From: an uncultured Clostridia bacterium
Lineage (GTDB): Bacteria; Bacillota; Clostridia; Oscillospirales; Acutalibacteraceae
Length of the DNA: 58,865 bases
Reading direction: 5' to 3'
Assembly: GCA_947585965.1 (NCBI GenBank)
Contig: CANPXK010000006.1
Span: forward strand, 1 to 58,865
Shown here in pieces: positions 41,184 through 57,775 of this stretch (position 1 is the first letter of the stretch; each line of letters starts with the position of its first letter). Position numbers and translations under genes: made by a program. Under the pieces are notes generated by a model. That model searched no databases, had not been told where the DNA came from, and was given only the letters and a program-made list of their open reading frames with translations.

Positions 41184-41217
41184 ATATTCACCTCTGTAAT
41201 CATCAGCATACAATTTC

Positions 41218-41246: not shown

Positions 41247-41325
41247 TAGTATCTCGTCAAACACTTTCAAGAACTTATTTATTTTATTGGCATAAAATAT
41301 TAATAAAAAGAGAGAGGTGATACAA

Positions 41326-41559: not shown

Positions 41560-42686
41560 TATATTTAGATAACTCTGCCACCACCTGCCCCAAGCCGCAA
41601 ACGGTATTGACTTCAACTATGTCAGCATTACGAACCTCGGCAAATCCGGGTAGGAGCGGTCACAATATGTCGCTTGCCGCTGCGGAAAAAATATATTCCG
41701 CACGTAGGACAGCGGCTAATTTTTTCGGAGTGGAAAATGAGGAAAATGTTATTTTCACTCCAAGCTGCACAACATCGCTTAATATGGCAATAAAGGGACT
41801 TCTTCAGAGCGGAGATCATGTTGTCGTATCTTCTATGGAGCATAATGCTGTTATGCGTCCTCTTGAAAGACTGAAAAGCAAAGGGATAACCTATACAAAG
41901 GCAGATGTTTTTATCGGTGATGATGATAGAACGACCGACAGCTTCCGTCATGCGATAAATGCAAAAACCAGACTGATTATATGCACACAGGCATCAAACG
42001 TATGGGGAATACGACTTCCTGTTGAGAGATTATGCGCATTGGCTCATGCCTACGGATTGTTATTTGTCGTTGATGCAGCACAAAGTGCAGGTGTAATACC
42101 GATAGATATGCACGAGGGCTATGATGTATTATGCACGGCAGGTCACAAAGGGCTTTACGGTCCTATGGGTATAGGATTAATGATTTTATCGGGGAACAAT
42201 ATCATGCAGACAATTATCGAGGGAGGAACAGGAAGCAATTCATATTCACTCGAACAGCCCGGTGAGCTACCCGATCGTTTTGAAAGCGGAACGCCGAATT
42301 TTCCCGGCATCATGGGACTCAAAAGCGGAATTGAGTTTGTAGGCTCCCGCAAGGTTGAAAAAATAGCGGAACATGAATTTAAGCTTATCAGATATCTGTA
42401 TAATAAATTGGAAAAAATGCACGGAATCAAACTGTACACTCCTATGCCTGATGAGAGATATTTCGTTCCCGTCTTATCATTTAATGCGGACGGATATGAC
42501 AGTGAGGAAGTTGCCGCAATTCTGAACAAAAATAATATTGCCGTACGTGCAGGGCTTCACTGTGCGCCATGTGCTCATGAGATGATGGATACGCTCGACT
42601 GCGGGGCGGTAAGAATATCCCCCTCTGTATTTACAAAGCCAAATGATATTGACAGGCTGATTTATGTCCTGTCAAAATTATACTGA
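41556..42686 (+). CDS. Class V aminotransferase / cysteine desulfurase-like protein (EF2568 type)
   Basis: A 376-residue PLP protein: MIYLDNSATTCPKP at the start, PLP lysine in CTAGHKGLYGPMG, and a conserved cysteine pair in RAGLHCAPCAHE. This subgroup (TIGR01977 type) is separate from IscS and SufS and is typically fused to or coupled with DUF3343, as here. It probably moves sulfur or selenium from Cys or Sec. The true substrate is unknown. It is the window's second desulfurase-type gene after 29648-30790. Confidence 0.9.
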   Translation: MIYLDNSATTCPKPQTVLTSTMSALRTSANPGRSGHNMSLAAAEKIYSARRTAANFFGVENEENVIFTPSCTTSLNMAIKGLLQSGDHVVVSSMEHNAVMRPLERLKSKGITYTKADVFIGDDDRTTDSFRHAINAKTRLIICTQASNVWGIRLPVERLCALAHAYGLLFVVDAAQSAGVIPIDMHEGYDVLCTAGHKGLYGPMGIGLMILSGNNIMQTIIEGGTGSNSYSLEQPGELPDRFESGTPNFPGIMGLKSGIEFVGSRKVEKIAEHEFKLIRYLYNKLEKMHGIKLYTPMPDERYFVPVLSFNADGYDSEEVAAILNKNNIAVRAGLHCAPCAHEMMDTLDCGAVRISPSVFTKPNDIDRLIYVLSKLY

Positions 42687-42693
42687 TTGACAC

Positions 42694-42720
42694 ACTCCCC
42701 CACCGAAAAGATGGGGGAGT
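42694..42720. terminator. Bidirectional hairpin between convergent genes
   Basis: ACTCCCCCA (42694-42702) pairs perfectly with TGGGGGAGT (42712-42720), 8 bases past the aminotransferase stop. The stem is strong but there is no T-tract on either side. It could terminate poorly or protect the 3' ends of both the aminotransferase and Ter operon transcripts. Confidence 0.5.
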
Positions 42721-42791
42721 CGTCATATCAAATACAAAATAAAATTACCCAAACGAATGACAGGGGGCAGTATCGGATTTTATATTCAATC

Positions 42792-43841
42792 CTATACATC
42801 CGACAGTTGTTTTATAAGTCCGCAGCATTTATAATTATTCAATTTCACATATTCTATTTCAACATTTTTTTCCCTTGCAAGCTGCCTTATATGCTCAAGC
42901 TCCGGACTTGTGCCGTATCTCCCGTCAATTATAATCTTCCACGGAACACGCCTGAGTAAAACTCTTGTGGTTTCCCCTATCCCCGGTTTAATAAAATTCA
43001 CATTACCGATTCCATACATATCCGAAATCATTTCAACATCCTTCATCCCGATATTTCCTGTCGCACCCTTTTCAGCCTGTAAATCAAAACGGAACCTGTC
43101 CGTAATATAGTCAATAAATTCATAGGTTCTGTCCTCCGGCGATAATTCCTTATAGAATGCCGCACCGTGGAAATCATTCCCGCCTATGATATCATTCCTG
43201 AGAAATGTCCTGCTTATAAGTCCGCAGACGGTACTGTTAAGACAGGAGCTGGGTATCATGATATCATCATGTGTTCCGCACAAATCCGTCAGATATGCCG
43301 GATCCGCAAGAACCGCAAGATTATCGGAAACTCCGTCAAAATTTGCTATTTCCCTCTTAAGTTCCCTGTAAATAACCCCCTTTCCTGTCCAGCCGTCAAC
43401 AAATTGCAGGCTTTCCGCATTATGCCTTTGCAGAATATAATTAATTGCATTTCTGTCAATACCGCGATCCCTGATTATGGAAACGGAATAATGCGGACAT
43501 TCATAACCGTATTTTTTTCTGATATAGCGTCTTATGAGTATTCCCACAGGTGTACCCGCTCTTGCAAGCGATACAATAACCGCCTTTTCTCCCTTTTTTT
43601 TAACTATTTTATCAGATACCCTCGCAACCGCATCGGCTGTATTCTGTCCGAATACCTCTAAGGACCTTTCATATATTCTTATATAATCATCGGTCGGTCG
43701 GTATTCAAGCGGAAGCATTTCGGAATAATGTGTTCCGCACTGTATTCTCTTTTCTCTTTCCCTTGCAGGCAAAGGCTCAACCAAGCCCGTTATATCCTTT
43801 AACAGAAGAATTACATCATCCTTCAAAAAACTGCTCTCCAT
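42792..43841 (-). CDS. StiP-type / PRTase_1-PELOTA protein of Ter biosynthetic module
   Basis: A 349-residue protein, the last gene of the Ter operon. The core (ESSFLKDDVILLLKDI, CGTHYSEMLPLEYRPTDDY, VSLARAGTPVGILIRRY, FVDGWTGKG) matches the phosphoribosyltransferase-like family annotated as 'cysteine protease StiP' (PF11202). The C-terminal 80 residues (WKIIIDGRYGTSPELEHI, LNNYKCCGLIKQL) resemble a PELOTA RNA-binding domain. In Ter systems it is paired with a second PRTase and predicted to help make a nucleoside-like metabolite. The ATG at 43841 has AAGG 8 bases before it; a longer frame would overlap the upstream gene. Confidence 0.85.
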   Translation of the reverse strand: MESSFLKDDVILLLKDITGLVEPLPAREREKRIQCGTHYSEMLPLEYRPTDDYIRIYERSLEVFGQNTADAVARVSDKIVKKKGEKAVIVSLARAGTPVGILIRRYIRKKYGYECPHYSVSIIRDRGIDRNAINYILQRHNAESLQFVDGWTGKGVIYRELKREIANFDGVSDNLAVLADPAYLTDLCGTHDDIMIPSSCLNSTVCGLISRTFLRNDIIGGNDFHGAAFYKELSPEDRTYEFIDYITDRFRFDLQAEKGATGNIGMKDVEMISDMYGIGNVNFIKPGIGETTRVLLRRVPWKIIIDGRYGTSPELEHIRQLAREKNVEIEYVKLNNYKCCGLIKQLSDV

Positions 43842-43857
43842 AAACAATACCTTCAAA

Positions 43858-44985
43858 TCATTCTTTATATATCCATCCGGCAACCGTGATATCCTTATTT
43901 CCTACAATTTTAAGTGCATTGCAAAGATCCTGCAATCCACAGGTATATTTTTGCGTATCGGTAAGTATAATAACCTTATCATACCTTTTGAGATTATATA
44001 TAAATGTCGTTCTTCCTTCATCATACATACTTCTCATCTGATAACGGCAATACAGGGGATAATCGGCTATACCCGAGGCTACAACAGGACTTCTTGTTGT
44101 TGAATGAATTTTGACATTTCCTGCCGTCCCCGATTCAATCAGCATATGACCGACAACAAGGGTAGGATACATAAATTCCTCCGTTCCTAAAACCAATACA
44201 TTTTCAAAATGCTCATGCCGGAAAAAATCAATTATCTCATTCGCATAGCCTGTTACATCCCTTTCATAATCGGAAAACATTATAATGTTCCTCGGATCGC
44301 TCCTGCCTTTAAATATTATTTCCGTAAAATCTTCCTCGGATCCGGATTGTACAATAATATGTCTTTCCTTGTCAAACGGAATACCCATAATGCTGTCCTT
44401 TTTATATTCATGCGGTATTTGCGAAATGAAAAGACATTCTATACCATCCTCTTTCAGTTCATTCATTCGCTCGTCTGTCATGCTGTTTAGGATAGACGCA
44501 ATACCGTATCCGATATCGCAGGCTCCGTATTTTCCCCTGATCACATCAATCAGCTTGCATATCGTACTTCCCGTTGTCACCTCATCATCAATAAAAACAA
44601 TTCTGTCAATATTTCCGATACATTTATCAATTCCGTACGAACGCAGCATCTGCTCTGTCGCATGGCTGTGTGATTCCGTAAAATAAAGATATTCCTCACC
44701 TTCACGGTATTCCCTCGTGGTATTCTGATAATATACCGCATTGTTCAGATAGGAGCATATGCCCGCCGCTATTCCCGTTGCGGTTTCCGCAAAGCCTATA
44801 ACATACAGTCTGTCACTCCCGTATTTATCATTAATAATATCGGCAAGTGCCTTACACATTCTGAGAGTACACTCCGGTGCTGTCGGAATATGCTTTCCCT
44901 GTATCGGATTTACATACAGATACGGGCGTTTTGAATTATTATCCCGTCTTGCCGTTCTAACTAAATCATCAACCGAATATTGCAA
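43858..44985 (-). CDS. Phosphoribosyltransferase with TRSP domain, Ter biosynthetic module
   Basis: A 375-residue protein. Residues 1-210 are a type I phosphoribosyltransferase-like domain with the PRPP loop RIVFIDDEVTTGSTICKLID and YVIGFAETATGIAAGI. Residues 225-375 fit the TRSP domain that accompanies it in Ter clusters (VLGTEEFMYPTLVVGHMLIE, HSTTRSPVVASGI, then the TRSP-like region YDKVIILTDT). It is predicted to attach ribose phosphate to a base. The start is TTG (44985), 8 bases after GGGAGGG. Gaps of 16-19 bases to both neighbours show one operon. Confidence 0.85.
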   Translation of the reverse strand: MQYSVDDLVRTARRDNNSKRPYLYVNPIQGKHIPTAPECTLRMCKALADIINDKYGSDRLYVIGFAETATGIAAGICSYLNNAVYYQNTTREYREGEEYLYFTESHSHATEQMLRSYGIDKCIGNIDRIVFIDDEVTTGSTICKLIDVIRGKYGACDIGYGIASILNSMTDERMNELKEDGIECLFISQIPHEYKKDSIMGIPFDKERHIIVQSGSEEDFTEIIFKGRSDPRNIIMFSDYERDVTGYANEIIDFFRHEHFENVLVLGTEEFMYPTLVVGHMLIESGTAGNVKIHSTTRSPVVASGIADYPLYCRYQMRSMYDEGRTTFIYNLKRYDKVIILTDTQKYTCGLQDLCNALKIVGNKDITVAGWIYKE

Positions 44986-45004
44986 TCCGAACTCCCTCCC
45001 GTAT

Positions 45005-45970
45005 TCATTTAATTCCGTATATTTCCGAAAGAATTATTGTTTTATATGCCCAGTTAATATTGGTCTTTATTTCGTTCATTCTTTCTCCGCCAAAGCTTTT
45101 CCCCACCTGAAGTCCGCTTTTATCCCAATTCAATATGTCCCTTGCATCCTCATAATCCTTCCGAGATACCATTAAGGATTCGTTTACGACATCAATCTGT
45201 TTTGGATGTATAACCGTCTTTCCGACAAATCCGTTCAATTTATCAAGCTTCAGTTCCCTCAGCATACCTGTTTTCCATTCATCATTTTCGCTTGAAAAAT
45301 ATTCCCATACTGCTCCGGAAACAACATATTCCCTTGAAAAAACAGTGAGAATATCCCCAAAAAGCTGTGCTATGGGCAGAATATCATAAATGGTTTCATC
45401 ATAATGTCTGCGTGTGGAAAACTGATTTGAAAAATCATTTCCGCCGACTCTTATATTAAGTACATAATTTCTTACTGAATCTATTTTTTCCTTAATCCCC
45501 GTAAGAACCTCATGACGTGCGGAATAATCTATAATATCGCTGCTTTCAAGAATGGGCATCATATATATTATCCTATCCGAAAGCTCATTGATTTTTCTTA
45601 CGGCATCATTATAACCGTCAGCATTGGAAAGTGTATATTTAGGAAATATGAATCCTGTTATAATACCGGAATATTCATGTAGGCGATCATACAACCGAAT
45701 CATCTGCTCACTGCTGCGCACCCTTATAAATATCTTAGGAAGATAAAACAGTTTTTTTGTGTACTCTTCAAAAATCAGACGGAGCGTAATGCAAAGCTGC
45801 TCCTCCGCCGCTTCTACGCTGTCGTCCGATATCGTATCCTCAAGACATATCGCCAAGGAATAGGGACGGCTGTATTTTTCCTCCGTAACTGCCTGTGCAA
45901 TACCTGTATTGAGTGCCGGTGAATACAAAAGTGCCCCGATACTGTATTTTTCTCTTATATTTTCAATCAT
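45005..45970 (-). CDS. CitE/HpcH-like aldolase-lyase of Ter biosynthetic module
   Basis: A 321-residue TIM-barrel protein of the citrate lyase beta/HpcH superfamily, in the form found with Ter genes. Metal- and CoA-site-like elements are ICLEDTISDDSVEAAE, IFIRVRSSEQMIRLYD, NIRVGGNDFSN (in place of the usual 'GTNDL') and GKTVIHPKQID. It would make or break a C-C bond in the Ter metabolite. The ATG follows AGGAG. The carrier or acceptor is not known. Confidence 0.86.
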   Translation of the reverse strand: MIENIREKYSIGALLYSPALNTGIAQAVTEEKYSRPYSLAICLEDTISDDSVEAAEEQLCITLRLIFEEYTKKLFYLPKIFIRVRSSEQMIRLYDRLHEYSGIITGFIFPKYTLSNADGYNDAVRKINELSDRIIYMMPILESSDIIDYSARHEVLTGIKEKIDSVRNYVLNIRVGGNDFSNQFSTRRHYDETIYDILPIAQLFGDILTVFSREYVVSGAVWEYFSSENDEWKTGMLRELKLDKLNGFVGKTVIHPKQIDVVNESLMVSRKDYEDARDILNWDKSGLQVGKSFGGERMNEIKTNINWAYKTIILSEIYGIK

Positions 45971-45986
45971 TTTTATATTACTCCTA

Positions 45987-46748
45987 TTATTTTAATACTC
46001 CCGATCTATGTATAATCTCAAGATTCATACAAATCTTATCAGAGATCACTTCCCCGCAAAGCCGCTGTTTTTCCGATATTTTAATACTGTCGAAAATCTT
46101 ATCCGCCGCCAGGGCATAATCTACCTCGTTAAGCATAGGAATATCCATTATATCATCCCCTGCGGCAACGGCTCTTCCTACGTTCACAATCTGTCGGAAC
46201 CGTCTTACCGCATTTCCCTTATTTACAACGGAAGCGAACAAATATACTTTTCTGCGGTCATATTCTGCACGTACATTTTTACCTTTTATCATTTTCCTCA
46301 GTTCATCACACAATCTCTGCGGTTCTTCCGCTCCCACATAACTCATATATACCTCCGGTCTGTGTATTTCTGATTTTCCGCATAATCTCTCCAATAACCG
46401 TGTTGATTCTTCAAGCTCATCAATCTGACCCACAGTAAGCCTCAGTGTTTCTTCAGTCCAGTTCTTATCCTCGGTTCCGTCAATAAGCAGCTTTCCCCCG
46501 TTACAGATAATGGCATACCTTATATTAAAAACATCAATGCAATTAATTCTCCTGTACTGAGCTTCCGTCCTCGTTGTAACGGGAACCATATTCAACCAGT
46601 GTGCCTGTGCCAGAAAATCATATGTTTTCCTTGTCATATAGCTTTGTTCCCTGCCGTTAAGATACTCCGCCGCTACCTTCTCTCCGTCAATTTTCCTGTT
46701 ATGGGAATAAATAAGCGTATTATCCAAATCCGAAAAAAATATATCCAC
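45987..46748 (-). CDS. HAD-superfamily phosphatase of Ter biosynthetic module
   Basis: A 254-residue HAD hydrolase with nucleophile motif FFSDLDNTLIYS, motif II VPVTTRT, a cap region, a lysine in NKGNAVRRF and motif IV AAGDDIMDIPML, like Cof-type sugar- or nucleotide-phosphatases. I start at the GTG at 46748: it leaves a 13-base gap after the AIM24-like gene, and GAGG precedes it by about 11 bases. An alternative start 18 codons upstream would overlap that gene. Confidence 0.86.
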   Translation of the reverse strand: MDIFFSDLDNTLIYSHNRKIDGEKVAAEYLNGREQSYMTRKTYDFLAQAHWLNMVPVTTRTEAQYRRINCIDVFNIRYAIICNGGKLLIDGTEDKNWTEETLRLTVGQIDELEESTRLLERLCGKSEIHRPEVYMSYVGAEEPQRLCDELRKMIKGKNVRAEYDRRKVYLFASVVNKGNAVRRFRQIVNVGRAVAAGDDIMDIPMLNEVDYALAADKIFDSIKISEKQRLCGEVISDKICMNLEIIHRSGVLK

Positions 46749-46761
46749 TACCGCACCATCC

Positions 46762-47448
46762 TCAATTATTCCTTGGCAGCATACCGGAAAGACTATTTGC
46801 AAAATCCCTTATATTCTGTGTCTGTAAAATCACCTTTCCCGGTCCGGTAAGTCTTGTCAGAAACAAACCCTCTCCGCCGAAAAATATATTCTTAAATCCT
46901 CGGACGGTTTCAATTTCATACGGTATTCCGCTCTGAAATGCAACAACATTTCCCGTATCGACCTTTATCACTTCGCCTGCCGCAAGCTCCTTTTCAACAA
47001 CATCACCGTCCACCTCAAGAAAGGCAGACCCCTGACCGCTCAGCTTTTCAAGAATAAATCCCTCTCCTCCGAAAAATCCGGACGACAGCCTTCTTGTAAA
47101 CTCAATCTTAAGCTGTACGGATGACTGCGAGCATAAAAAGGATCCCTTCTGGCATATAAGCCCGTTCGGATGCTCTCTGAGTCTTATCGGTACTACCTTC
47201 CCGGGAACCGTAGAAGCAAATGCAATCGTGGCTCCGGGTCTTTCCGCCCTGTAGTGAGCCATAAACAGACTTTCGCCTGCGAACATTCTTCCGAGTCCCG
47301 AAAGTGCTCCGCCGTTTGTATCGGTAGTCATGGATATACCGTCGGACATCCATGCCATACCTCCCGACTGTGTTATCATTTCCTCGCCTGCCTGTTCAAA
47401 CAGTACCTCAACAGCGGGGACAACATTACCTATAATTCTGAATTTCAT
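46762..47448 (-). CDS. AIM24/TIGR00266 family protein
   Basis: A 228-residue all-beta protein. The pattern GGMAWMSDGISMTTDT, FMAHYRAERPGATIAFAS and RGFKNIFFGGEGLFLTRLTG, including an internal repeat of 'FFGGEG' (residues ~125 and ~190), marks the family. Its biochemical role is unknown; some homologs occur with TerD genes. The ATG at 47448 follows GAGGTG. It lies between the ATP-grasp and HAD genes in the biosynthetic part of the Ter operon. Confidence 0.88.
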   Translation of the reverse strand: MKFRIIGNVVPAVEVLFEQAGEEMITQSGGMAWMSDGISMTTDTNGGALSGLGRMFAGESLFMAHYRAERPGATIAFASTVPGKVVPIRLREHPNGLICQKGSFLCSQSSVQLKIEFTRRLSSGFFGGEGFILEKLSGQGSAFLEVDGDVVEKELAAGEVIKVDTGNVVAFQSGIPYEIETVRGFKNIFFGGEGLFLTRLTGPGKVILQTQNIRDFANSLSGMLPRNN

Positions 47449-47459
47449 CCTATAACACC

Positions 47460-48461
47460 TCATTCGATAATCAGCGGCTGTAATATCTGAGATATGATTT
47501 TTTCTTCATAATTATTTTCCCATTCACAATCCTCTCCCAACAGCTTTTTCAATGCTATCTGCGGAATATTTACTCCGCTTGCATAACAAGCCATCTGTAT
47601 CCCGCCTGACATCCTTGTATTTACCTCAAGAAAATAAGGTATTCCGTCGAGGTATTTGAACTGTATATTATACGGACAGCTTAAACCGGCCTTTTTCTGA
47701 AATTTTCTGCACATATCTGTAATTTCATCATCATAACGAATTATCTCGTATTTGCTGCTGCCCTTGACACGGGGAAGTGCTATAAGTCCCCTGGCGGTAT
47801 CAAGGCAATCAACACTGATTTCATCATCAGGCAAAAACGGCATTATCATTATCGGTGAAAATTCATCCTTTTCCGAAAGAGCTGCCATAGCATCATCAAG
47901 GGTCATTCGTGTATTCTGTTTCTTAAAAAGTGAATTATATCCCTTTCTTTGGTTATCTATGAGCCTGAAGCTTTTTCCGCCCTCGTCCTTTGCAAATTTA
48001 AAACATACCTGTTTATATTTTCCGCTAAGCTCATTATATGCTGAAATAAAATCCTGCGGTGTCGTTACAATATGATAATCAGGCACGGCTGCTATTTCAT
48101 TCTCTTTGAAAAATTTATATGCCCGCTCCTTATGATTGAGTATTGATACAATGTCATAATTATCAAGCATAACCTTAACGCCGATTTCCTCAAATCTGTG
48201 TTTTTGCTCACTTATTTTCAGCATACCCCTGCGTGGAATGAATACCTCAACTCCATGCTCCCTGCAAAATTGCAGACAGAAGTCAACATATTCTTCACTG
48301 CTCAGAACCGGCTCACGGTACCATTGGTCGCATACGGTTCTTATTACCGAATATTCATTTTCATTTGTTCCGATTATGCAAAGTCCGGGATTATTTTCCC
48401 TCAGAAGTCCTATTATATTCCATGCTGTGCTGAACCAGTGATTTAACCATACCGTTACCAT
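47460..48461 (-). CDS. ATP-grasp enzyme of Ter biosynthetic module
   Basis: A 333-residue ATP-grasp protein: a Rossmann-like start (VTVWLNHWFSTAWNIIGLLR), the nucleotide-binding lysines in KQVCFKFAKDEGGKSFRL, MIMPFLPDDEISVDCL and the metal-site FLEVNTRMSGGIQ. It fits the ATP-grasp_Ter group, thought to join a carboxylate to an amine or thiol in a Ter-linked metabolite. The ATG follows GGAG with 8-base spacing. Gaps of 45 and 11 bases separate it from its neighbours. Confidence 0.88.
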   Translation of the reverse strand: MVTVWLNHWFSTAWNIIGLLRENNPGLCIIGTNENEYSVIRTVCDQWYREPVLSSEEYVDFCLQFCREHGVEVFIPRRGMLKISEQKHRFEEIGVKVMLDNYDIVSILNHKERAYKFFKENEIAAVPDYHIVTTPQDFISAYNELSGKYKQVCFKFAKDEGGKSFRLIDNQRKGYNSLFKKQNTRMTLDDAMAALSEKDEFSPIMIMPFLPDDEISVDCLDTARGLIALPRVKGSSKYEIIRYDDEITDMCRKFQKKAGLSCPYNIQFKYLDGIPYFLEVNTRMSGGIQMACYASGVNIPQIALKKLLGEDCEWENNYEEKIISQILQPLIIE

Positions 48462-48506
48462 CTCTGTTACTCCATTCGTTAATAGTTAATATTACATAAA
48501 CCTTTT

Positions 48507-49526
48507 TCATACCTGAGGCATAAAGAATATTTTTCCGATATTATGCATTTTATTGAATACCAATGCAAAAGCTCTTGTATCGTATTTCCCCGCCATAGCC
48601 TTAGCCAATGCACTACAGGTCTTTCTCTCCAATTCTTCAAGGCTCATAAACTCACCCTTGTTCTTCAGCGCTTTAAAAATAATCTGCTTTGATGCAAGCC
48701 TGTCATTTATCAGCTTCTCTAATTCCCCATAGGTGCTTACAAAGCTTTTTGTACAGTAAAAATAATTAAGACGTGTTGATGTACATTCGGGAAGATCGCC
48801 TATAGGCTGATGATCAAGCATAATATCCTTGGTCGTCACATTGAAATAATCATAGCTTATATGACGCAGATCGCCGTCATACATATTATCCCATGTCACA
48901 TCAACATAATATGATTCGTCCCTTATTTTAACGAGGTTCCATGCATGATAATCGTCATTATCAAAATTACCGTTTTCATTTGCCTTTCCGAGAACTACAA
49001 TACACTTTATCCCAAATTCATTGCAAAGCAGCTTAAATGCCTTTGCTATCCCCTCACATACGGCACGCTTATCAAGAAATGCTCCCACAATCGAATGTGC
49101 ATTGAACGAGTCCTGCTTTTTTAACGAATCATAATCATATGCAACACTCTTTACGACACTGTCATGCAGACATTTCTCAAGACGGAATTCGTCGTTTCCG
49201 AAACTCTCCGCCTTTGCCCTTACACGGTTGATAATAGTTCTGATATCCGTATTTATTATGCTTATTTCCCTGTTTGTATAAAGATATTCGGGAAGCAGCA
49301 CCCAGTATCCGAACATTCCCTGCATTTTTATTATTGTCTGATTTACATAATAAAACAGGGGATTATCATACAATACCCTGAGATATATCTCCTGGATCTC
49401 AACCTGCGACAGCGGTAAGGCTATCACAATATTAAAAGACCGCATCTTTAACCCATCATAAATAATTCTGTATGCTTTTCGCTCATCCGGTGGCATAATG
49501 CTGTAATAATATCTTTCATTCTTCAT
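48507..49526 (-). CDS. Cytosolic transglutaminase-like protein in Ter operon
   Basis: A 339-residue protein without a signal peptide. The N-terminal 130 residues (PPDERKAYRIIYDGLKMRSF and following) resemble the helical part before bacterial transglutaminase cores. The triad is Cys in KRAVCEGIAKAFKLLC, His in DYHAWNLVKIRDE and Asp in YYVDVTWDN. It could cleave or cross-link Ter partners or the LRR protein encoded next door, from which 15 bases separate it. It is distantly like the membrane-bound protein at 36746-38035. Its ribosome site is weak. Confidence 0.82.
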   Translation of the reverse strand: MKNERYYYSIMPPDERKAYRIIYDGLKMRSFNIVIALPLSQVEIQEIYLRVLYDNPLFYYVNQTIIKMQGMFGYWVLLPEYLYTNREISIINTDIRTIINRVRAKAESFGNDEFRLEKCLHDSVVKSVAYDYDSLKKQDSFNAHSIVGAFLDKRAVCEGIAKAFKLLCNEFGIKCIVVLGKANENGNFDNDDYHAWNLVKIRDESYYVDVTWDNMYDGDLRHISYDYFNVTTKDIMLDHQPIGDLPECTSTRLNYFYCTKSFVSTYGELEKLINDRLASKQIIFKALKNKGEFMSLEELERKTCSALAKAMAGKYDTRAFALVFNKMHNIGKIFFMPQV

Positions 49527-49541
49527 TTTATTTACCGTTTG

Positions 49542-51044
49542 TCAAATAGCCGTATACTTTATTCTGTGAGCTTTACAATACATAACGGCATATTCATTAT
49601 TCTTTACCGCAACTTCAATATCAGGACAGCCGATAAATGCCCCATCGCCTATAAATGAAACATTTTCCTGTATAACTGCTTTTTTCAGCGAAGTACACCC
49701 GATAAATGCCATATTCCCTATTTCACGCACACTTTTTGGCACACTAATGCTCCTCAGATTACGACATCCCTGAAATGCACAATCTCCTATTCTTACAATA
49801 CCCTGCGGCAGTATAACACTCGCCACATTCTCACAATGACGGAAAGCCCTTTCTCCTATAAGCTTAACGCTTTTTGGCAGAATAATGCTCTCCAGCCCGA
49901 TACAGTTTTCAAAAGCACTTTCACCTATCTCCATTAACGTATCCGTAAATGTAACCGAGGTCAGATACATCACATCTCTGAATGATTTTTTGCCTATTTT
50001 TACTGTACCGTATTCAAGACAACAGGCTGCATCCTGTTTTCCCTGCGGATAGCGCAGCAATTCCTTTCCGTCACGACTGTACAATACACCATCAAAGCTT
50101 CTGAAAAAAGCGTTATTCTCATCTGCAATTATCCGTTTCAGATTCATTGTATGGCAGAAGGCATCCTCTTCGATTTTTTCCACACTCCCGGAAATTCTTA
50201 CATTCTCCGCTTCGCAAAAATCAAACGACCTCCTGCCGATAGTTTTTATACCGTCTACTACGGATATGTTCCTTTTTTTGCTGTATATATACCGCATAAG
50301 TACTCTGTTTTTCTTATCAATAAAAAAACCGTTATCCGCAGTATAATAAGGGTTGCTTTCGATTATTATATTTTCAAGGTCTGTGCAGCCGTCAAATATA
50401 TTTCTGCCTATTTCTTCCGTTCCCCTTGTTATTCTTACGGTTTTTAATGCCCTGCACCCCTTAAAGGCTTTCGGATAAATCCTTTTAATATTCTGCGGTA
50501 TATCAATCTCTGTAAGCTGCCGATTGAATGCAAATGCCTTATATCCGATACTGCTGTATGCATACAAATCGCTTTTCCTGACAAGTGCATCAAAGGTTCT
50601 TTCTCCCTTTATCAGCTGCTTTTCTCCCAACGTGCCGACAGAAGATTTTTCGTATGTCGAAATATCCGGTATCATTGATTCCGCAATTACATCAACAACA
50701 TATTGTGCTGCTTCCTCTGTAATGAACATTTCGGAAACAAGTAATGCCTTACATCTTTGCATAATCTCTCCGATTGGCTCATTTTCGTCAATTCCTCTCC
50801 TGAACTGTGTCAGAATGCCCTCCTTGAGTGCATTTATAATCAGCTTCCGCTCTCTTACCATTCCCGGAGCATAATCCATAAGAAATGCATTGAACCTGAA
50901 GGTATCATATACAATATCACCGCCGTATTCCTGCCTTATCCCGAAAATAATATCCTCTAAATTTCTTTTGGTTTTCTCATATTCACCGTCGGGTTTAAAA
51001 TAATTTGAACTCATACAGGCACTGCTCATATCTTTATCTGTCAC
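49542..51044 (-). CDS. Cytosolic BspA-type leucine-rich repeat protein in Ter operon
   Basis: A 500-residue protein without signal peptide or anchor. Residues 1-150 are a helical domain I do not recognise (RNLEDIIFGIRQEYGGDIVY and on). Residues 175-490 are about eleven BspA-type (LRR_5) repeats such as MEIGESAFENCIGLESIILP and RIGDCAFQGCRNLRSISVP. Such repeats mediate binding and are mostly known from surface proteins; here the protein would stay inside. The start is GTG at 51044 behind GGGGGA. An apparent terminator lies between it and the PP2C gene. Confidence 0.88.
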   Translation of the reverse strand: MTDKDMSSACMSSNYFKPDGEYEKTKRNLEDIIFGIRQEYGGDIVYDTFRFNAFLMDYAPGMVRERKLIINALKEGILTQFRRGIDENEPIGEIMQRCKALLVSEMFITEEAAQYVVDVIAESMIPDISTYEKSSVGTLGEKQLIKGERTFDALVRKSDLYAYSSIGYKAFAFNRQLTEIDIPQNIKRIYPKAFKGCRALKTVRITRGTEEIGRNIFDGCTDLENIIIESNPYYTADNGFFIDKKNRVLMRYIYSKKRNISVVDGIKTIGRRSFDFCEAENVRISGSVEKIEEDAFCHTMNLKRIIADENNAFFRSFDGVLYSRDGKELLRYPQGKQDAACCLEYGTVKIGKKSFRDVMYLTSVTFTDTLMEIGESAFENCIGLESIILPKSVKLIGERAFRHCENVASVILPQGIVRIGDCAFQGCRNLRSISVPKSVREIGNMAFIGCTSLKKAVIQENVSFIGDGAFIGCPDIEVAVKNNEYAVMYCKAHRIKYTAI

Positions 51045-51079
51045 AGCTTACAGTCCCCCACATTCAGAATACCATAACA

Positions 51080-51124
51080 AAAATTAAAAATGCAGACATA
51101 CCACCAAGACGCGATATATCTGCA
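51080..51124 (-). terminator. Apparent internal terminator/attenuator in the Ter operon
   Basis: On the minus strand TGCAGA (51124-51119) extends as an imperfect stem of about 10 bp to TCTGCA (51096-51091), followed by TTTTTAATTTTTG. It lies in the 89-base gap between the PP2C and LRR genes, the largest gap of the operon. It could reduce expression of the eight downstream genes relative to the five before it plus the leader. Confidence 0.6.
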
Positions 51125-51133
51125 TCACATTTA

Positions 51134-52411
51134 CTATATATCCGTTTCTTGCTCGACATTCTCACCGTTTTCCGTATCGGTACATCCGCAATTATTATCT
51201 TCACCTTCCGACTCCTGTACATCCGCCGCCACATCTGTTTTCCCGTCAACAGTCGACAAAGACCTCACATGTATATCCGTATCAGCCTTAACAGCTTGTA
51301 CGGAAACATTCTGTGGTTTTATATGGACAGACTTTACTTTCATACCGCAGTTGGTACAGAACTTATCACCCATTTTCAGTCTTTCACCGCAGCCTTCACA
51401 GAAAGAAAGCTCCTCAGACTGTCCCTTATTTTCCGTATCTGACATCTTACGGCTGAGAAACTTTTCATGCTCTTCCTCAATACGTCTTTTTTCTGCTTCC
51501 TTTTTTTCGGCTTCCCTACGGGCATTTTCTTCAATGCGTGCTTTTTCTTTATCTCTATCAAATTCCTTCACAACCGGCAATTCCGGAATAAGCTCCATAT
51601 CAAGAATTGCAGCAACTGATACATCATCACCGCTGCCCTTTGCCGATAATCTCGGAAGATAATCCGCAAATCCGTCCAAAGCCTCCCGGAACCGTGTCGT
51701 TGCAAAGGAATACAAAACCGTCTTATACAGATTATTCAACTGTTGATTATTACTGAAACAATCATCTATTCCGTCAGAACCGACAAACACCGCCGCCGGC
51801 AATCTTTCCGAATAGAAATGACGAAATTCGCCTATGGCATCCGAGTCACATATCGAAGTGGTTACATTCAGAAAGCATTTCTTATCCCACGGAATCGGCT
51901 GTTTAAACTCACCCTTTGAATTTACCGCAACACACTTTCCGTCACCTATATGGATACCAAACCAAAAATCATGTGTCATGGCAACGGCTATCATCGTTGT
52001 TCCGTATGCACTCTCTATTTTTTCCTCATCAACATATTTCCTGCGCGCCTTTTCGGAAACCGTATTCAATTCATCCTCTGTAAAAGGATTCTGCCTGTGA
52101 TAAGCTGCAATTTCTTCGTTCCAACTGTTTATTATGCTTGCCTCCAGATTTTTGATGTGCTTTTCCGGAGCCGAGAAAAATCTGTCCTTATCCGTACCTA
52201 TGATAAAATTCCTTATATTTTTCTCCGCAACTGCACACCCGATTTTAGAACCCACGGCACTCCTGACATAATCATCGCCGCCGTGTCCGTCACAAACTAC
52301 GGCAATCGCACCATCATCATCAAAGAAGCTTGTGCAGGCATCCTGACATTCCTTATTTTTTCTTATATGACTTGCACCGCGGGCAGATAAATGAAAGACT
52401 CTTGCATTCAT
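51134..52411 (-). CDS. PP2C-type Ser/Thr phosphatase with C-terminal zinc ribbon
   Basis: A 425-residue phosphatase of the TerY phospho-switch. The PP2C metal-site aspartates are visible in AVVCDGHGGDDYV, FVGSDGIDD and AKGSGDDVSVAA. The catalytic part covers about 1-265. Then comes a charged coiled segment (EENARREAEKKEAEKRR), a CEGC/CTNC zinc ribbon at about 340-365 and a disordered acidic tail. The ATG at 52411 is 8 bases after AGGAGG; an upstream ATG would overlap the VWA gene. It is expected to oppose the kinase encoded at 53219-54520. Confidence 0.9.
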   Translation of the reverse strand: MNARVFHLSARGASHIRKNKECQDACTSFFDDDGAIAVVCDGHGGDDYVRSAVGSKIGCAVAEKNIRNFIIGTDKDRFFSAPEKHIKNLEASIINSWNEEIAAYHRQNPFTEDELNTVSEKARRKYVDEEKIESAYGTTMIAVAMTHDFWFGIHIGDGKCVAVNSKGEFKQPIPWDKKCFLNVTTSICDSDAIGEFRHFYSERLPAAVFVGSDGIDDCFSNNQQLNNLYKTVLYSFATTRFREALDGFADYLPRLSAKGSGDDVSVAAILDMELIPELPVVKEFDRDKEKARIEENARREAEKKEAEKRRIEEEHEKFLSRKMSDTENKGQSEELSFCEGCGERLKMGDKFCTNCGMKVKSVHIKPQNVSVQAVKADTDIHVRSLSTVDGKTDVAADVQESEGEDNNCGCTDTENGENVEQETDI

Positions 52412-52428
52412 AGTAATGCCCTCCTGTT

Positions 52429-53193
52429 TCACCACTGTACACCGTCATCATCAAAGGAATCCCAATCCGCCGCTTCCACCGTCTGTGCCTGAATCTCCTT
52501 TACAAACTCATCCTGCTTGCTCACTATTTCGGCACCTGTTTCTTTATTGCTTCCCGAACCCCCCCCGATACCTGTGTTGGAGCTTTTGCTTCCTATTTCG
52601 GATGCACGGACACTGACAAACTGAATCCATTTCTTCAAAGCCTCCGGCGTATGAGCTGTGATCACCGCTTCTGTATTTCCGGTAAAATCCGCAAGCACAT
52701 TCTTATTTGCATCATCTCCGATCGCAACGGCCACCTTTATCGCCTTTTTGAACCAGTTATTCTGTTTGAGCTTCTCAAGACCGTGCTTATAATTATCCGT
52801 AGGCGCACCATCGGACATAAGAAATATTGCCGGGGCAAAGGAGCCCGTCGCATCACTCATATATGCATTTCTTGAAAGCTTCTCGTTAAGCTGATTACAC
52901 GCTTCTCCCAGATCCGTAACACCGCCGGCGTCAAGATAATTCCACCTGAAATTTTCAGCGGCAACAGGGGCGCTTTCCATCCAGTGTGCACCTGTTGAAA
53001 ATGCAAGCGTTGCAACCTTGATCTGTGCATCCGCATTACTTTCGGAAATATCCTTAAGCTCGGGTACTATCTCCTCTATGGCCGAATTAACAGTACCGAT
53101 TTTTGACCCGCTCATACTCCCGGACGTGTCTATAACAAAAAACAGAACCATTGTTCTTCTCGGCACTTCTACTACGTCATCATATAATCCCAT
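52429..53193 (-). CDS. terY: TerY-like von Willebrand factor A domain protein
   Basis: A 254-residue protein beginning MGLYDDVVEVPRRTMVLFFV, close to known TerY starts. The MIDAS metal site is DTSGSMSGSKI with the later threonine and aspartate (GGVTDLGEA, MSDGAPTDNY). The domain fills residues 14-205; a Gly/Ser-rich link and an acidic end follow. TerY, PP2C and kinase form the 'TerY-P triad' known from Ter systems. The start at 53193 has GGGGA 8 bases upstream; the frame is open 15 codons further. Confidence 0.92.
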   Translation of the reverse strand: MGLYDDVVEVPRRTMVLFFVIDTSGSMSGSKIGTVNSAIEEIVPELKDISESNADAQIKVATLAFSTGAHWMESAPVAAENFRWNYLDAGGVTDLGEACNQLNEKLSRNAYMSDATGSFAPAIFLMSDGAPTDNYKHGLEKLKQNNWFKKAIKVAVAIGDDANKNVLADFTGNTEAVITAHTPEALKKWIQFVSVRASEIGSKSSNTGIGGGSGSNKETGAEIVSKQDEFVKEIQAQTVEAADWDSFDDDGVQW

Positions 53194-53218
53194 TTGCAAT
53201 TCCCCGCTTTCCTGATAT

Positions 53219-54520
53219 TCAGATAATTTCACCCTCATTACCGTTTCCGAAATTTATCTTGAGTCCTCTGCCAAGCCTTATGACCTGATCCCTGTCGTAT
53301 GGCTTCGTTGTTCCGTTTGGAAGTATTGCTGTCCATACATTATCGGACATATTCCTTAAACCGAGTATCGACGGGTCACTGCGGCTTGTTATAAAACCTC
53401 CTGTGACAGACCTGAAGTCGTCACTGTCGTAAACCGTATGACAGGCAAAAAGCTCCTTACCCGGTGCGGCAGCAACCCTGTATTTTTTCACTCTGAGCAG
53501 CGGCGGTCTTTTTATACTCTGACCGCAATTGATACATCTGCACGACCCTGCCTCTATATCCGCAAACGTTTCACCCTTGCATACAGGACACGAAATCAGT
53601 ACATCTCTCAGGGCGGTAAAAATCTCCTGCCATTTTTTCTCCTGAACTCTATGCTCCGTATCGGCACCTGTCATTGATTCCATGCTAAACGCCTCGGTGA
53701 ATGTTTCCCTTATAAATTCGGGATATACAGGCCAGAATTTTATTTCATTGACATGAACGCCCCTGACCGGTCTGTTTATATCATTCCCCGGATCCCATAC
53801 AAAAACAGGCTCTGTTCCGTAAAATTTACGCTCATGTTCTTCCGTAAGACAAGGACACATGGTCTTCTTTCCCTCAAGCGGATGATTCAAAAACAGAAGC
53901 ATATACAACACAACCGCAAGCGAAAAACGGTCGGTATGTATATCGGGTCTTTTTTTGCCCACAACTACCTCGGGCGCCATATATCTGCATTTTCCCGCAA
54001 TTCCTAAATTCTCTCCGTATGGTGCGACATTATCATTATCGCATATGAGAACATCGCCTGTCTTGGGATTTACAAAGAAATTTCCGTCATTAAGATCCTG
54101 ATAGCTGAAGCCTCTGCGGTGAAGTTCACGGAATCCGTTGGTTATACATAAAGCAGCATTAATAACCGCATCAATGCTTAAAAATCTTACTTTTGCAAGA
54201 AGAAAGAGGGAGAAATCCTTATACTCAGGCGGTCTCAGTTCCATAAGATATCCGAAGCTGCCATCGAATTGTTCCGTTATCTCAATAGGCCACAGAAACG
54301 CACCCGTGGGAGCACCCTGCTTAATATTATTCTGAATATTCCTATAAAACTTATCGGGATCACTGAGCTTATTTCTAAAATACCATTTCAAAGCAAGCTG
54401 TCTTCCGTTATAGCTTACTCTATAAACCAAACCCTGTCCGCCCTCTCCGAGCTTCTGCAATATTTCAAGTTCTCCCCCGGATGCTGTTCTTATTCTCTGA
54501 CCTCTCTGAAATTCCTTCAA
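53219..54520 (-). CDS. Ser/Thr protein kinase with zinc ribbon and FHA-like tail
   Basis: A 433-residue kinase. Motifs: Gly-loop GEGGQGLVYRV (about 25-35), lysine 45 in LALKWYF, catalytic loop SYQDLNDGNF (usual HRD replaced by YQD, Asp kept) and metal motif CDNDNVAP in place of DFG. The kinase part ends near 300. A CPVC/CINC zinc ribbon follows, then about 90 residues (RVAAAPGKELFACHTV...VIRLGRGLKINFG) that look FHA-like. The TTG at 54520 has GAGG 8 bases before it. It is expected to phosphorylate Ter partners and be reversed by the PP2C protein. Confidence 0.9.
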   Translation of the reverse strand: MKEFQRGQRIRTASGGELEILQKLGEGGQGLVYRVSYNGRQLALKWYFRNKLSDPDKFYRNIQNNIKQGAPTGAFLWPIEITEQFDGSFGYLMELRPPEYKDFSLFLLAKVRFLSIDAVINAALCITNGFRELHRRGFSYQDLNDGNFFVNPKTGDVLICDNDNVAPYGENLGIAGKCRYMAPEVVVGKKRPDIHTDRFSLAVVLYMLLFLNHPLEGKKTMCPCLTEEHERKFYGTEPVFVWDPGNDINRPVRGVHVNEIKFWPVYPEFIRETFTEAFSMESMTGADTEHRVQEKKWQEIFTALRDVLISCPVCKGETFADIEAGSCRCINCGQSIKRPPLLRVKKYRVAAAPGKELFACHTVYDSDDFRSVTGGFITSRSDPSILGLRNMSDNVWTAILPNGTTKPYDRDQVIRLGRGLKINFGNGNEGEII

Positions 54521-54550
54521 GCACCCCACCTCTTTTCCGCATAAAGCCGT

Positions 54551-55135
54551 TTACACATTACCGCCAAAGGAACGGACAATAGCCTCCAGACCGCCCTGAT
54601 ATCCGCCTGCAATCGCATTAAATCTCCACTGACCGTTCTTATTGTATATTTCGGCAACTACCAATGCCGTTTCAATCGAAAACTCTTCCTCAAGATCAAA
54701 TTTGAGGACAGTTTCTCCTACCGTATCAAATTCATCCGCAAGCTTCGCAATTCTTATATATGCATTGGAAACCTGTCCGAAATTCTGTCCGCGTTCCGCA
54801 GCTTCATAAATCGTTACACATATCGCAATTCTCTTTATATCATCCGGTATCTTTGTGAAATCAATCATTATGACCTCATCATCTCCCTCGCCCTCACCGG
54901 TGAGGTTATCTCCCGTATGAATAACGGCATCGTTCCTGCTCCTGAGATTATTATAAAAAATAAAATCCTCATCTCTCTGAAGCTTTCCGTTTTCTCCGAG
55001 AAGAAATACCGAAGCGTCAAGGTCGAAATCATATCCGCCGTCATAGCGGTTCGTATCCCATCCGAGACCTACCAAAGCGTGTGTCAGATTATTATCCAAA
55101 GATACCTTTTGTCCCTTTACCAAACTGATTGCCAT
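54551..55135 (-). CDS. terD: TerD-family calcium-binding stress protein 1
   Basis: A 194-residue TerD/TerE-type protein: SLVKGQKVSLDNNL, ALVGLGWDTNRYDG, the acidic sites DFDLDASVFLL and DNLTGEGEGDDEVIMID, and NKNGQWRFNAIAGGYQGGL at the end. TerD proteins bind calcium and are linked to resistance to tellurite, phage and other stress. Normal length; ATG behind AAGGAGG. The sequence is closer to classical TerD/TerE than the second copy. Confidence 0.96.
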   Translation of the reverse strand: MAISLVKGQKVSLDNNLTHALVGLGWDTNRYDGGYDFDLDASVFLLGENGKLQRDEDFIFYNNLRSRNDAVIHTGDNLTGEGEGDDEVIMIDFTKIPDDIKRIAICVTIYEAAERGQNFGQVSNAYIRIAKLADEFDTVGETVLKFDLEEEFSIETALVVAEIYNKNGQWRFNAIAGGYQGGLEAIVRSFGGNV

Positions 55136-55186
55136 TTTATTGTCCTCCTTATATTTTATATTGGGTTTATAATGCTGCAGCTTTAT

Positions 55187-55792
55187 TTATCTGTACAGCT
55201 GAACCATGTTTTCCAGTCGGCTTGCCTCACGTACGGGCTGACCTATGGCATTAAATTTCCATTCGCCGTTTTTTCTGTATATCTCTCCGACAACAAGACC
55301 TGTCATATTATCATAGTTGCTTGACAGATCATAGCGGCAGATCTCAACATTATTATCCATATTAACAAGACGTATGAATGCGTTTCTTATCATCCCGAAA
55401 TGCTGATGTCTGACAGTTGCATCATATATATTTACAACAAAGACTATTTTGTCAATATTCTGAGGCACCTGACTGAGATTCACCATAATCTGCTCATCGT
55501 CACCCTCGCCCGCACCTGTCAGGTTATCTCCCTGATGCACAATAGCTCCGCTGCTGTGTCTGAGACTTCCGAAGAAAACGCAATAGTCTTCAAACCTGCC
55601 TCCGATAACCTTGCCGTTTGCTCCGCATAGGATAGCTGATGCATCACAGTCGATATCCTCCTGCTTTTTTGCAAAAAATCCACCCCTTTGCTGTACCTCA
55701 TCCCAGCCGAGTCCGACCATAACCCTTCTCAGACCCTGTCCGCCGCCTTTTGTAAGGTCAATTTTCTGACCCTTTTGTAAACTTATACTCAT
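55187..55792 (-). CDS. TerD-family calcium-binding stress protein 2
   Basis: A 201-residue TerD-family protein with an insert after the first strand pair (QRGGFFAKKQEDIDCDASA) and the conserved DNLTGAGEGDDEQIMVNL site. It differs from copy 1 in having a Gly-rich GGGQGLRRV start and the end VREASRLENMVQLYR. The layout resembles TerD-family forms sometimes called TerA/TerF-like in Clostridia. It follows the small membrane protein by 24 bases and precedes TerD 1 by 51 bases. Confidence 0.94.
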   Translation of the reverse strand: MSISLQKGQKIDLTKGGGQGLRRVMVGLGWDEVQQRGGFFAKKQEDIDCDASAILCGANGKVIGGRFEDYCVFFGSLRHSSGAIVHQGDNLTGAGEGDDEQIMVNLSQVPQNIDKIVFVVNIYDATVRHQHFGMIRNAFIRLVNMDNNVEICRYDLSSNYDNMTGLVVGEIYRKNGEWKFNAIGQPVREASRLENMVQLYR

Positions 55793-55816
55793 TATTATCT
55801 CCTCCCGACATATTTT

Positions 55817-56044
55817 CTACTCATTTTCCTCAGTATCAAATGTGTTATCTTTGCTGAAATAACAACACCAACATATCGTATCATAGATAGTAAGGATAAT
55901 CGACAAGATAAACAGAAACAGCAGCCGGTCATATCTCTCACTTAAAATATCCAAAACTGTCCAACCGACCGGATCTAATGATATTATAAGACCTAAAAGC
56001 GGCACTGCAAGAGAGTACGGTTTCTTTTCATTGCTAACTATCAT
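55817..56044 (-). CDS. Small membrane protein leading the Ter operon
   Basis: A 75-residue protein with two hydrophobic segments (PYSLAVPLLGLIISLDP, about 8-24, and LLFLFILSIILTIYDTICWC, about 41-60) and an acidic end (DNTFDTEENE). I do not recognise it. An AGGAGAAG site lies 6 bases before the ATG. It is the first gene after the operon promoter and ends 24 bases before terD-family copy 2, so it is cotranscribed. It might place the Ter proteins at the membrane; that is inference. Confidence 0.7.
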   Translation of the reverse strand: MIVSNEKKPYSLAVPLLGLIISLDPVGWTVLDILSERYDRLLFLFILSIILTIYDTICWCCYFSKDNTFDTEENE

Positions 56045-56168
56045 TTTTTACTTCTCCTTTTTTTCAACATACCGTAGACACAAAAATTAAACATTAGTAT
56101 TGATTAATTATTATCCACCTTACTGCATAAGCGCATCATTTAAAAATCATATTTCAAGTAACAAATAC

Positions 56169-56197
56169 ATTTTACACCTTGCATTATAATTTGTCAA
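56169..56197 (-). promoter_or_regulatory. Sigma-A-type promoter of the Ter operon
   Basis: On the minus strand TTGACA (56197-56192), a 17-base spacer and TAAAAT (56174-56169). The first gene starts 125 bases downstream. This is the only strong promoter seen before the 14-gene run ending at 42792. Confidence 0.75.
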
Positions 56198-56303
56198 TAT
56201 GTACCAAAACATTTTACGAATGATTGGCAGATTATATCGTTTTCGACACTTTACAATATAAAAAGATGCCCCATATTAATAGGGACACCTCCTTAAGATT
56301 ATA

Positions 56304-56954: not shown

Positions 56955-56960
56955 GGGACA

Positions 56961-57713: not shown

Positions 57714-57775
57714 TACAATTCCCCCATTCCGTTTTGTAATGTATATGCCGTATTATATAAAAAATATCCCCTTAC

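What the first reader, a model, noticed from the sequence alone, without database searches (positions are those of the whole stretch)
42792..56197. Fourteen-gene Ter stress operon joining phospho-switch, LRR, transglutaminase and biosynthetic module
One promoter, small gaps and a single strand link two TerD proteins, the TerY/kinase/PP2C triad, and the ATP-grasp, HAD, CitE-like and two PRTase-type enzymes predicted in known Ter systems to make a nucleoside-like metabolite. Added to these are parts I cannot place in described systems: a leader membrane protein, a cytosolic BspA-type LRR protein, a cytosolic transglutaminase and an AIM24-like protein in the middle of the enzyme set. The whole looks like a signal-to-metabolite stress or defence unit.
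Basis: partly seen in the sequence, partly recalled or inferred. Interest (0 to 1): 0.85.

Follow-up and report, generated by a model that had tools for sequence, protein, structure and literature searches.

The report
Modular Ter phospho-switch operon with LRR–transglutaminase
A bacterium carries a run of stress-response (Ter) genes in which a known protein phospho-switch is followed by two extra genes, a leucine-rich-repeat protein and a transglutaminase-like enzyme, and then by a known enzyme set thought to make a nucleoside-like compound; the extra pair looks like a new variant of a known system whose function is untested here.

Summary
All 14 minus-strand genes are there. Most are catalogued Ter families: TerD, kinase–TerY–PP2C (TerY-P triad), enzyme set, AIM24. 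An IncHI2 plasmid holds a similar mix. LRR and transglutaminase (TGase) are the new part. They follow the close triad in 9 of 9 loci (window plus 8; two near-identical and chosen by TGase), but not the more distant triads of L072, L087, L091. The TGase Cys-His-Asp is invariant in 10 of 10. Two loci lack the enzyme set, and its lyase was not found in their genomes; 74 of 80 lyase-found loci show no such TGase. So these are separable modules, not one fixed pathway. The leader gene was found only here; AIM24 and ATP-grasp come and go; AIM24–TerD linkage is in print. A terminator-like hairpin lies between PP2C and LRR in 9 of 9, so "one promoter, one unit" is too simple. New variant of a known kind; function inferred, not shown.

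The parts
55817..56044 (-). 75-aa hydrophobic (membrane) leader ORF; not a conserved part
   Evidence: No Pfam family; no relative in the loci searched; max hydropathy 2.2 over 19 residues
55187..55792 (-). TerD family protein a
   Evidence: PF02342 E 5.5e-71
54551..55135 (-). TerD family protein b
   Evidence: PF02342 E 6.3e-73
53219..54529 (-). Ser/Thr kinase with C-terminal zinc ribbon (TerY-P kinase)
   Evidence: PF00069 E 1e-15; K48, D145, D164 invariant in 8 of 8 aligned kinases; C314/C317/C332/C335 in the window sequence (motif meaning recalled)
52429..53238 (-). TerY-like VWA protein with MIDAS motif
   Evidence: PF00092 E 1.5e-07, over cut-off; D37-S39-S41, T108, D143 invariant in 6 of 6
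51134..52435 (-). PP2C phosphatase with C-terminal zinc ribbon
   Evidence: PF13672 E 5.6e-33; zinc-ribbon models below their cut-offs; D49, D221, D270 and C346/C349/C360/C363 invariant in 6 of 6
51089..51126 (-). Conserved hairpin plus U-run (terminator- or attenuator-like) between PP2C and LRR
49542..51044 (-). Cytosolic BspA-type LRR protein with a ~150-aa N-terminal region; an N-terminal zinc ribbon is seen in 6 of 9 copies (L071, L078, L093, L166, L190, L191) and not here
   Evidence: PF13306 E 8.5e-60
48507..49526 (-). Cytosolic transglutaminase-fold enzyme, Cys157-His194-Asp209
   Evidence: PF01841 E 5.6e-11; residues invariant in 7 of 7 and in L190, L191, L192
47460..48461 (-). ATP-grasp of the Ter biosynthetic set
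   Evidence: PF15632 E 2.9e-34; missing in 3 of 7 full operons
46762..47463 (-). AIM24 family protein
   Evidence: PF01987 E 5.2e-69; in 5 of 7 full operons, at a different place in L093
45987..46802 (-). HAD hydrolase (Cof/HAD-IIB like)
   Evidence: PF08282 E 4.9e-05, over cut-off; weak NCBIfam Cof match
45005..45970 (-). CitE-like C-C bond lyase of the Ter set
   Evidence: PF15617 E 1.5e-96
43858..44985 (-). Phosphoribosyltransferase with TRSP domain
   Evidence: PF15609 E 4.9e-40, PF12500 E 4e-21
42792..43883 (-). StiP domain (Pfam: cysteine protease) with PELOTA RNA-binding domain
   Evidence: PF11202 E 2e-101, PF15608 E 1.8e-30
56169..56197 (-). Sigma-70-like promoter candidate
   Evidence: 11 of 12 consensus bases; not tested

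Best explanation
A composite Ter stress operon made of two separable modules. Module 1 (TerD, TerD, kinase, TerY, PP2C, LRR, TGase) is a signalling-and-effector cassette. TerD and the TerY VWA/MIDAS protein sense a metal-linked or envelope-linked state and steer a kinase/phosphatase pair. The most likely targets of that switch are the two proteins encoded right behind it: a cytosolic LRR scaffold that picks partners, and a cytosolic TGase-fold enzyme that cleaves or cross-links a protein. Module 2 (ATP-grasp, HAD, lyase, PRTase, StiP/PELOTA, with or without AIM24) is the known Ter biosynthetic set, predicted by others to make a nucleoside-like metabolite. A conserved hairpin after PP2C probably ends part of the transcripts, so that switch proteins are made in excess over effector and enzyme proteins. 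Shown here: gene content, intact catalytic residues, co-occurrence of LRR+TGase with the close triad, separability from the enzyme set, the conserved hairpin. Inferred: each step of signalling, the enzyme's activity and substrate, attenuation, and benefit to the cell.
For: Family assignments. Same cassette in window, L068, L069, L071 (Eubacterium yurii), L078, L093, L100/L166, L190, L191; LRR and TGase downstream of PP2C in 9 of 9. Active-site residues invariant. L190/L191 were found by TGase, not by lyase, have no enzyme set in the locus and no lyase hit in the genome. Tails without cassette are common, and the cassette-bearing tails are not one clade (AU p 3e-8 for six rows; 3e-17 with L100). 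Hairpin: 9 of 9 by motif; 6 of 9 by a strict stem scan against 0 of 45 other junctions of 15 nt or more in these operons and 18 of 1399 background windows; z -2.9 to -5.9 in the six folded; one copy in the own genome; L166, L190 and L191 were examined after the motif was set. The same stem stands 14 nt behind a TPP riboswitch in L070, a place where a terminator is expected. No operon protein but the leader ORF has a membrane-like stretch.
Against: No expression or biochemical data. More distant kinase-TerY-PP2C sets lie upstream of the lyase in L072, L087 and L091 with no LRR or TGase (kinase 43% identical in L072, L087), so the triad does not need them. L190/L191 have TGase by choice of query. 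Gene trees within the seven full operons do not discriminate: triad, LRR+TGase and tail trees are compatible, and LRR distances correlate with the tail (0.84-0.90) as well as with PP2C (0.81). The hairpin shows wobble changes but no two-sided compensation (0 of 14 pairs), its stem is A+T-rich for a terminator, and in L069 the LRR frame stays open through it, so the gap there rests on my choice of start. The lax motif also matched 15 other places, of which only L070's looks like a comparable hairpin (by eye). A TGase relative (41% identity) ends a FtsK/WXG-like module with no TerD or kinase (L192). The lyase search had no positive control in the call. Only 9 loci: L190/L191 near-identical, window/L068/L069 close.
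Confidence: 0.5

Rival explanations
1. LRR and TGase are remnants of a T7SS-like FtsK/WXG module that once sat in the operon. In L100/L166 a block with FtsK, EspC/WXG-like and ADP-ribosylglycohydrolase genes lies between LRR and TGase, and L192 has FtsK...TGase alone; the window would be a reduced form in which TGase keeps a residual role.
For: L192 and the L100/L166 block share FtsK (997 bits), x269, EspC-like and x91 genes, with TGase last in both. TerY-P with WXG/FtsK is a published association (PMC4978471 and PMC11090510, passages).
Against: The other 8 cassette loci hold no relative of the FtsK, WXG-like, x269 or ADP-ribosylglycohydrolase genes in the stretches held. TGase stays 63-82% identical to the window's with its catalytic residues intact, which is not decay.
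Confidence: 0.2
2. The operon is the published Ter stress system with lineage-specific neighbours; LRR and TGase were picked up once and inherited, with no role in the switch.
For: TGase-like genes are common in the class: ten other hits at E 1e-30 to 1e-41, whose stretches hold no relative of operon genes. LRR evolves fast (38-68% identity to the window's). Distant triads do without the pair (L072, L087, L091).
Against: Place behind PP2C held in 9 of 9 loci with the close triad, recovery by a TGase search, no signal or membrane stretch, same hairpin in front.
Confidence: 0.2
3. One obligate signal-to-metabolite pathway of 14 genes.
For: Single strand, short gaps; 7 of 9 cassette loci carry the enzyme set.
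Against: Stand-alone cassette in L190/L191; leader gene only here; AIM24 missing in 2 of 7 and ATP-grasp in 3 of 7 full operons.
Confidence: 0.1

Closest known systems
TerY-P triad (TerY VWA, PP2C, Ser/Thr kinase with zinc ribbon)
   Same: Three adjacent genes, MIDAS motif, zinc ribbon behind the kinase, link to TerD; a TerY_C-type gene in 5 of 9 loci, not in the window
   Different: Followed by LRR and TGase genes; published examples are tied to restriction and DNA-processing genes (PMC11090510 passages; compare Prevotella plasmid)
Ter biosynthetic module (ATP-grasp, PRTase_2/TRSP, C-C lyase, HAD, StiP/PELOTA)
   Same: All families present and over Pfam cut-offs
   Different: AIM24 inserted; ATP-grasp missing in 3 of 7 related operons
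ter locus of an IncHI2 plasmid, E. coli p14EC029b (the one plasmid looked at)
   Same: TerD-type genes; ATP-grasp, PRTase, StiP and lyase with a hypothetical gene among them; VWA, TerY-C, PP2C and kinase genes, all within 20 kb
   Different: Has TerB, TerC, TerZ, TerW and runs in two directions; no LRR or TGase annotated (gene table may be incomplete)
FtsK/WXG100 (T7SS-like) modules linked to TerY-P
   Same: A TGase relative ends such a module in L192; such a block sits inside the L100/L166 operon
   Different: None of its genes found in the window operon
TerY-P antiphage system of Gao et al. 2020 (seen only through passages of PMC7699616 and PMC11090510)
   Same: Kinase, phosphatase, VWA
   Different: Said to carry an OB-fold on the kinase; here a zinc ribbon; no phage test exists for this operon

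Membership tests
TerY-P triad | TerY-like VWA domain with MIDAS motif | tested here: met
   VWA over cut-off; D37-S39-S41, T108, D143 invariant in 6 of 6
TerY-P triad | PP2C-like phosphatase in the same operon | tested here: met
   PF13672 E 5.6e-33
TerY-P triad | Ser/Thr kinase fused at the C-terminus to a zinc ribbon | tested here: met
   PF00069; CxxC...CxxC at 314-335 read in the window sequence; no Pfam zinc-ribbon hit on this protein
Ter biosynthetic module | ATPgrasp_Ter, PRTase_2/TRSP, C-C lyase, HAD, StiP/PELOTA encoded together | tested here: met
Ter biosynthetic module | Product is a nucleoside-like metabolite | not testable with these tools
   Prediction of others; the 2012 paper is not held
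Canonical tellurite-resistance ter operon | TerC, TerB or TelA encoded with TerD | tested here: not met
   None among the 14 genes; a second locus on contig C29 holds further TerD genes and was not scanned for TerC, TerB or TelA
TerY-P antiphage defence | Protection against phage | not testable with these tools
   10 of 14 proteins scanned against PADLOC: kinase hits (mad6, PD-T4-6, C3a189) and one marginal PRTase hit; no TerY-P call
Transglutaminase-like enzymes | Cys-His-Asp triad | tested here: met
   C157, H194, D209 invariant in 10 of 10 aligned sequences

The most novel reading that the evidence does not exclude
TerD-triad-LRR-TGase is a self-contained, undescribed effector system: a metal-gated phospho-switch arms a cytosolic TGase-fold protease that an LRR protein directs to its target, in the manner of sensor-protease immune pairs. 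It can stand alone (L190/L191), be coupled to a metabolite pathway (window) or to a T7SS-like FtsK/WXG block (L100/L166), with a conserved attenuator setting the switch-to-effector ratio.
Probability: 0.3. Interest if true: 0.72.

Novelty: new variant of a known kind. Interest (0 to 1): 0.47.

Why it matters
Ter systems are found on plasmids and chromosomes and are linked to phage and metal stress, yet what their phospho-switch acts on is, as far as I know, open. A cassette in which two likely effectors sit right behind the triad, and which occurs both with and without the metabolite genes, gives a natural experiment for separating what the switch controls from what the metabolite does.

Tried and rejected
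Gene-tree congruence as proof that LRR+TGase travel with the triad: a six-locus analysis looked favourable, but the seven-locus trees are all compatible and distances do not discriminate; a test against L078+L093 tails being sisters also failed (p 0.25). I dropped that argument. The tail tree used 39 of the 68 loci (window counted) that had all three tail genes.

Promoter call: weak excess over shuffles. Covariation of the hairpin: none two-sided. Rfam on 41000-58000: nothing over gathering scores. Viral contigs: no TGase relative confirmed. Plasmids: 2 weak TGase matches. The ATP-grasp family search at order level rang in 352 of 394 genomes; many listed hits lie in ORFs of about 1070 or 1350 aa, probably carbamoyl-phosphate synthase and its like (by length and recall); not used for counts.

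Structure: the LRR job was never accepted. The TGase model finished late and is poor (mean pLDDT 43.3, pTM 0.32, 7 sequences), so no fold search was made with it. PDB by sequence gave one TGase relative at E<=0.01, 9crn.

Genus neighbours: the flanking aminotransferase rang in 21 of 21 genomes; stretches of 7 were read: one (G1134) has StiP in the same place at a contig end, six have no operon gene at E<=1e-5 in the stretch held.

Print: no described LRR or TGase partner of TerY-P in the listings and passages of searches; the key 2012 paper is not held, so absence from print is not shown. Papers were seen as passages only: PMC5822837, PMC3710099, PMC11090510, PMC7824862, PMC12054061, PMC1779556, PMC7699616, PMC4978471.

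Full report
What is there. Fourteen minus-strand ORFs run from 56044 to 42792 with overlaps or short gaps. Pfam assigns 13 of 14. In order of transcription: a 75-aa hydrophobic ORF, TerD, TerD, Ser/Thr kinase, TerY-like VWA, PP2C, BspA-type LRR, TGase, ATPgrasp_Ter, AIM24, HAD, C-C lyase, PRTase_2/TRSP, StiP/PELOTA. The last gene is not a second PRTase: Pfam calls it a cysteine protease family with an RNA-binding PELOTA domain. None of the proteins but the first has a membrane-like stretch. The window's genome is a 2.87-Mb, 196-contig assembly with further TerD genes on contig C29.

What is known already. The kinase-TerY-PP2C set meets the published description of the TerY-P triad (VWA, PP2C, kinase with zinc ribbon; PMC11090510, passages). 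Several enzymes have Pfam families named after Ter. The lyase has relatives on 2,515 plasmid records; on the one I looked at, E. coli p14EC029b (IncHI2), TerD-type genes, ATP-grasp, PRTase, StiP, lyase, a hypothetical gene among them, and VWA, TerY-C, PP2C and kinase genes lie within 20 kb. AIM24 near TerD is stated in PMC5822837 (passages) with reference to Anantharaman et al. 2012, which I could not read. So the core of the finding is a known kind.

What is new. A scan of one genome for each of 84,980 species with a lyase alignment kept the best 80 of 378 relatives. Six of these 80 carry the operon-type TGase (L068, L069, L071, L078, L093, L100). In five of the six, TerD-kinase-TerY-PP2C-LRR-TGase precede the lyase in the locus. 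In L100 the cassette looked absent; a search of its genome found TerY, and the stretch L166, which overlaps L100, shows TerD genes, kinase, TerY, PP2C and LRR, then a block with FtsK, EspC-like (below cut-off), HD, ADP-ribosylglycohydrolase and Lgt-like genes, then a TerY_C-type gene, TGase and the enzyme set. In L093 AIM24 lies between LRR and TGase. Against this, L072, L087 and L091 have more distant kinase, TerY and PP2C genes before the lyase and no LRR or TGase (kinase 43% identical in L072 and L087). The statement "always with LRR and TGase" therefore holds only for the close triad (kinase 76-87% identical to the window's).

Recovery by another query. A TGase profile found only the own genome at E<=1e-60 in 391 class genomes (the ten weaker hits lie in stretches with no relative of operon genes) and in 398 family genomes. 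In 397 genomes of the family of L078 it found five: those of L078 and L093 again, G1163 and G1488, and a weaker one in G1176. G1163 and G1488 (L190, L191) have TerD-kinase-TerY-PP2C-LRR-TerY_C-TGase and then unrelated genes: no enzyme set. The lyase profile finds nothing in these genomes (no positive control in that call, and their completeness is not told). G1176 (L192) has FtsK, WXG-like genes and TGase with no TerD or kinase in the stretch. Hence the cassette can stand without the enzyme set, and the enzyme set often stands without the cassette.

Parts that come and go. The leader ORF has no relative in 99 loci nor in L166, L190, L191, L192. ATP-grasp is missing in 3 of 7 full operons (L068 with a remnant, L069, L078), and the profile finds none in those three genomes at E<=1e-10. 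AIM24 is missing in 2 of 7 (L071, L078). A TerY_C-type gene lies between LRR and TGase in L071, L100, L190 and L191 and downstream of StiP in L093: 5 of 9. The LRR N-terminal zinc ribbon is seen in 6 of 9 (L071, L078, L093, L166, L190, L191) and not in window, L068 or L069.

Catalytic integrity. TGase C157, H194 and D209 are invariant in 7 of 7 and in L190, L191 and L192. Kinase, PP2C and TerY keep their motif residues (motif meanings recalled).

The hairpin. Between PP2C and LRR the window has a 16-pair stem with a U-run. The same stem sits at the same place in L068, L069, L071, L078 and L093, and, looked at after the motif had been set, in L166 and in L190 and L191: 9 of 9. In L069 the LRR frame is open through the hairpin, so the gap rests on my choice of start. 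The lax motif also matched 15 other places; only the one in L070 looks like a comparable hairpin (by eye). Of the six folded, z-scores are -2.9 to -5.9. A strict scanner sees it in 6 of 9 (by eye one of the others has a mismatch and two have a long loop) and in 0 of 45 other junctions of 15 nt or more in these operons; background is 18 of 1399 windows. Changes are mostly G-U wobbles without two-sided compensation, which suits an RNA hairpin better than a DNA operator but is not proof. The own genome has one copy. In L070 the same stem follows a TPP riboswitch (RF00059) by 14 nt. A terminator or attenuator is the simplest reading.

History. In a tree of lyase, PRTase and StiP from 39 loci the cassette-bearing operons are not one clade (AU p 3e-8), with loci that lack the close cassette, such as L070 and L075, among them. 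That fits gain or loss of the cassette. Trees among the seven full operons cannot say more. In the window's genus, one relative (G1134) has StiP in the same place, six others read have no operon gene there, and five genus members had no operon-type TGase. A P-type cation ATPase gene lies directly upstream of TerD in L078, L166 and L191, in line with a role near metal or calcium handling.

How it may work. Sensing by TerD/TerY, a kinase-PP2C switch, and LRR plus TGase as output is inferred from gene order and intact active sites. The enzyme set would add a metabolite arm in 7 of 9 loci. Rivals: TGase as a leftover of a FtsK/WXG module; passive neighbours; one obligate pathway.

Noticed in passing
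L166:8785-14501 and L100:1-5916: A block with FtsK (1106 aa), EspC/WXG-like, HD, ADP-ribosylglycohydrolase and Lgt-like genes sits between LRR and TGase of a full operon; FtsK, x269, EspC-like and x91 relatives with a TGase stand alone in L192.
   Followed up: partly
L058 (own genome contig C29) 944-12553: Second Ter locus in the same genome: two TerD-like ORFs, 387-aa and 761-aa ORFs of the size of TelA and YceG (size only, recalled), and an 836-aa LRR-like ORF on the same strand.
   Followed up: no
L078:2-1513, L166:3-767, L191:1334-4021: P-type cation-transporting ATPase gene directly upstream of the TerD genes.
   Followed up: partly
L070:16712-16862: TPP riboswitch followed by the same GCAGATATATC hairpin stem as in the Ter operons.
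   Followed up: yes
L073, L077, L080, L083, L085: Succinivibrionaceae/Aeromonadales (Pseudomonadota) loci with TerD-TerD-ATP-grasp-HAD-lyase-PRTase-StiP nested among Bacillota in the tail tree, which suggests horizontal transfer.
   Followed up: no
window 42690-42721: G+C-rich inverted repeat between StiP and the convergent aminotransferase gene, a possible shared terminator (read by eye).
   Followed up: no
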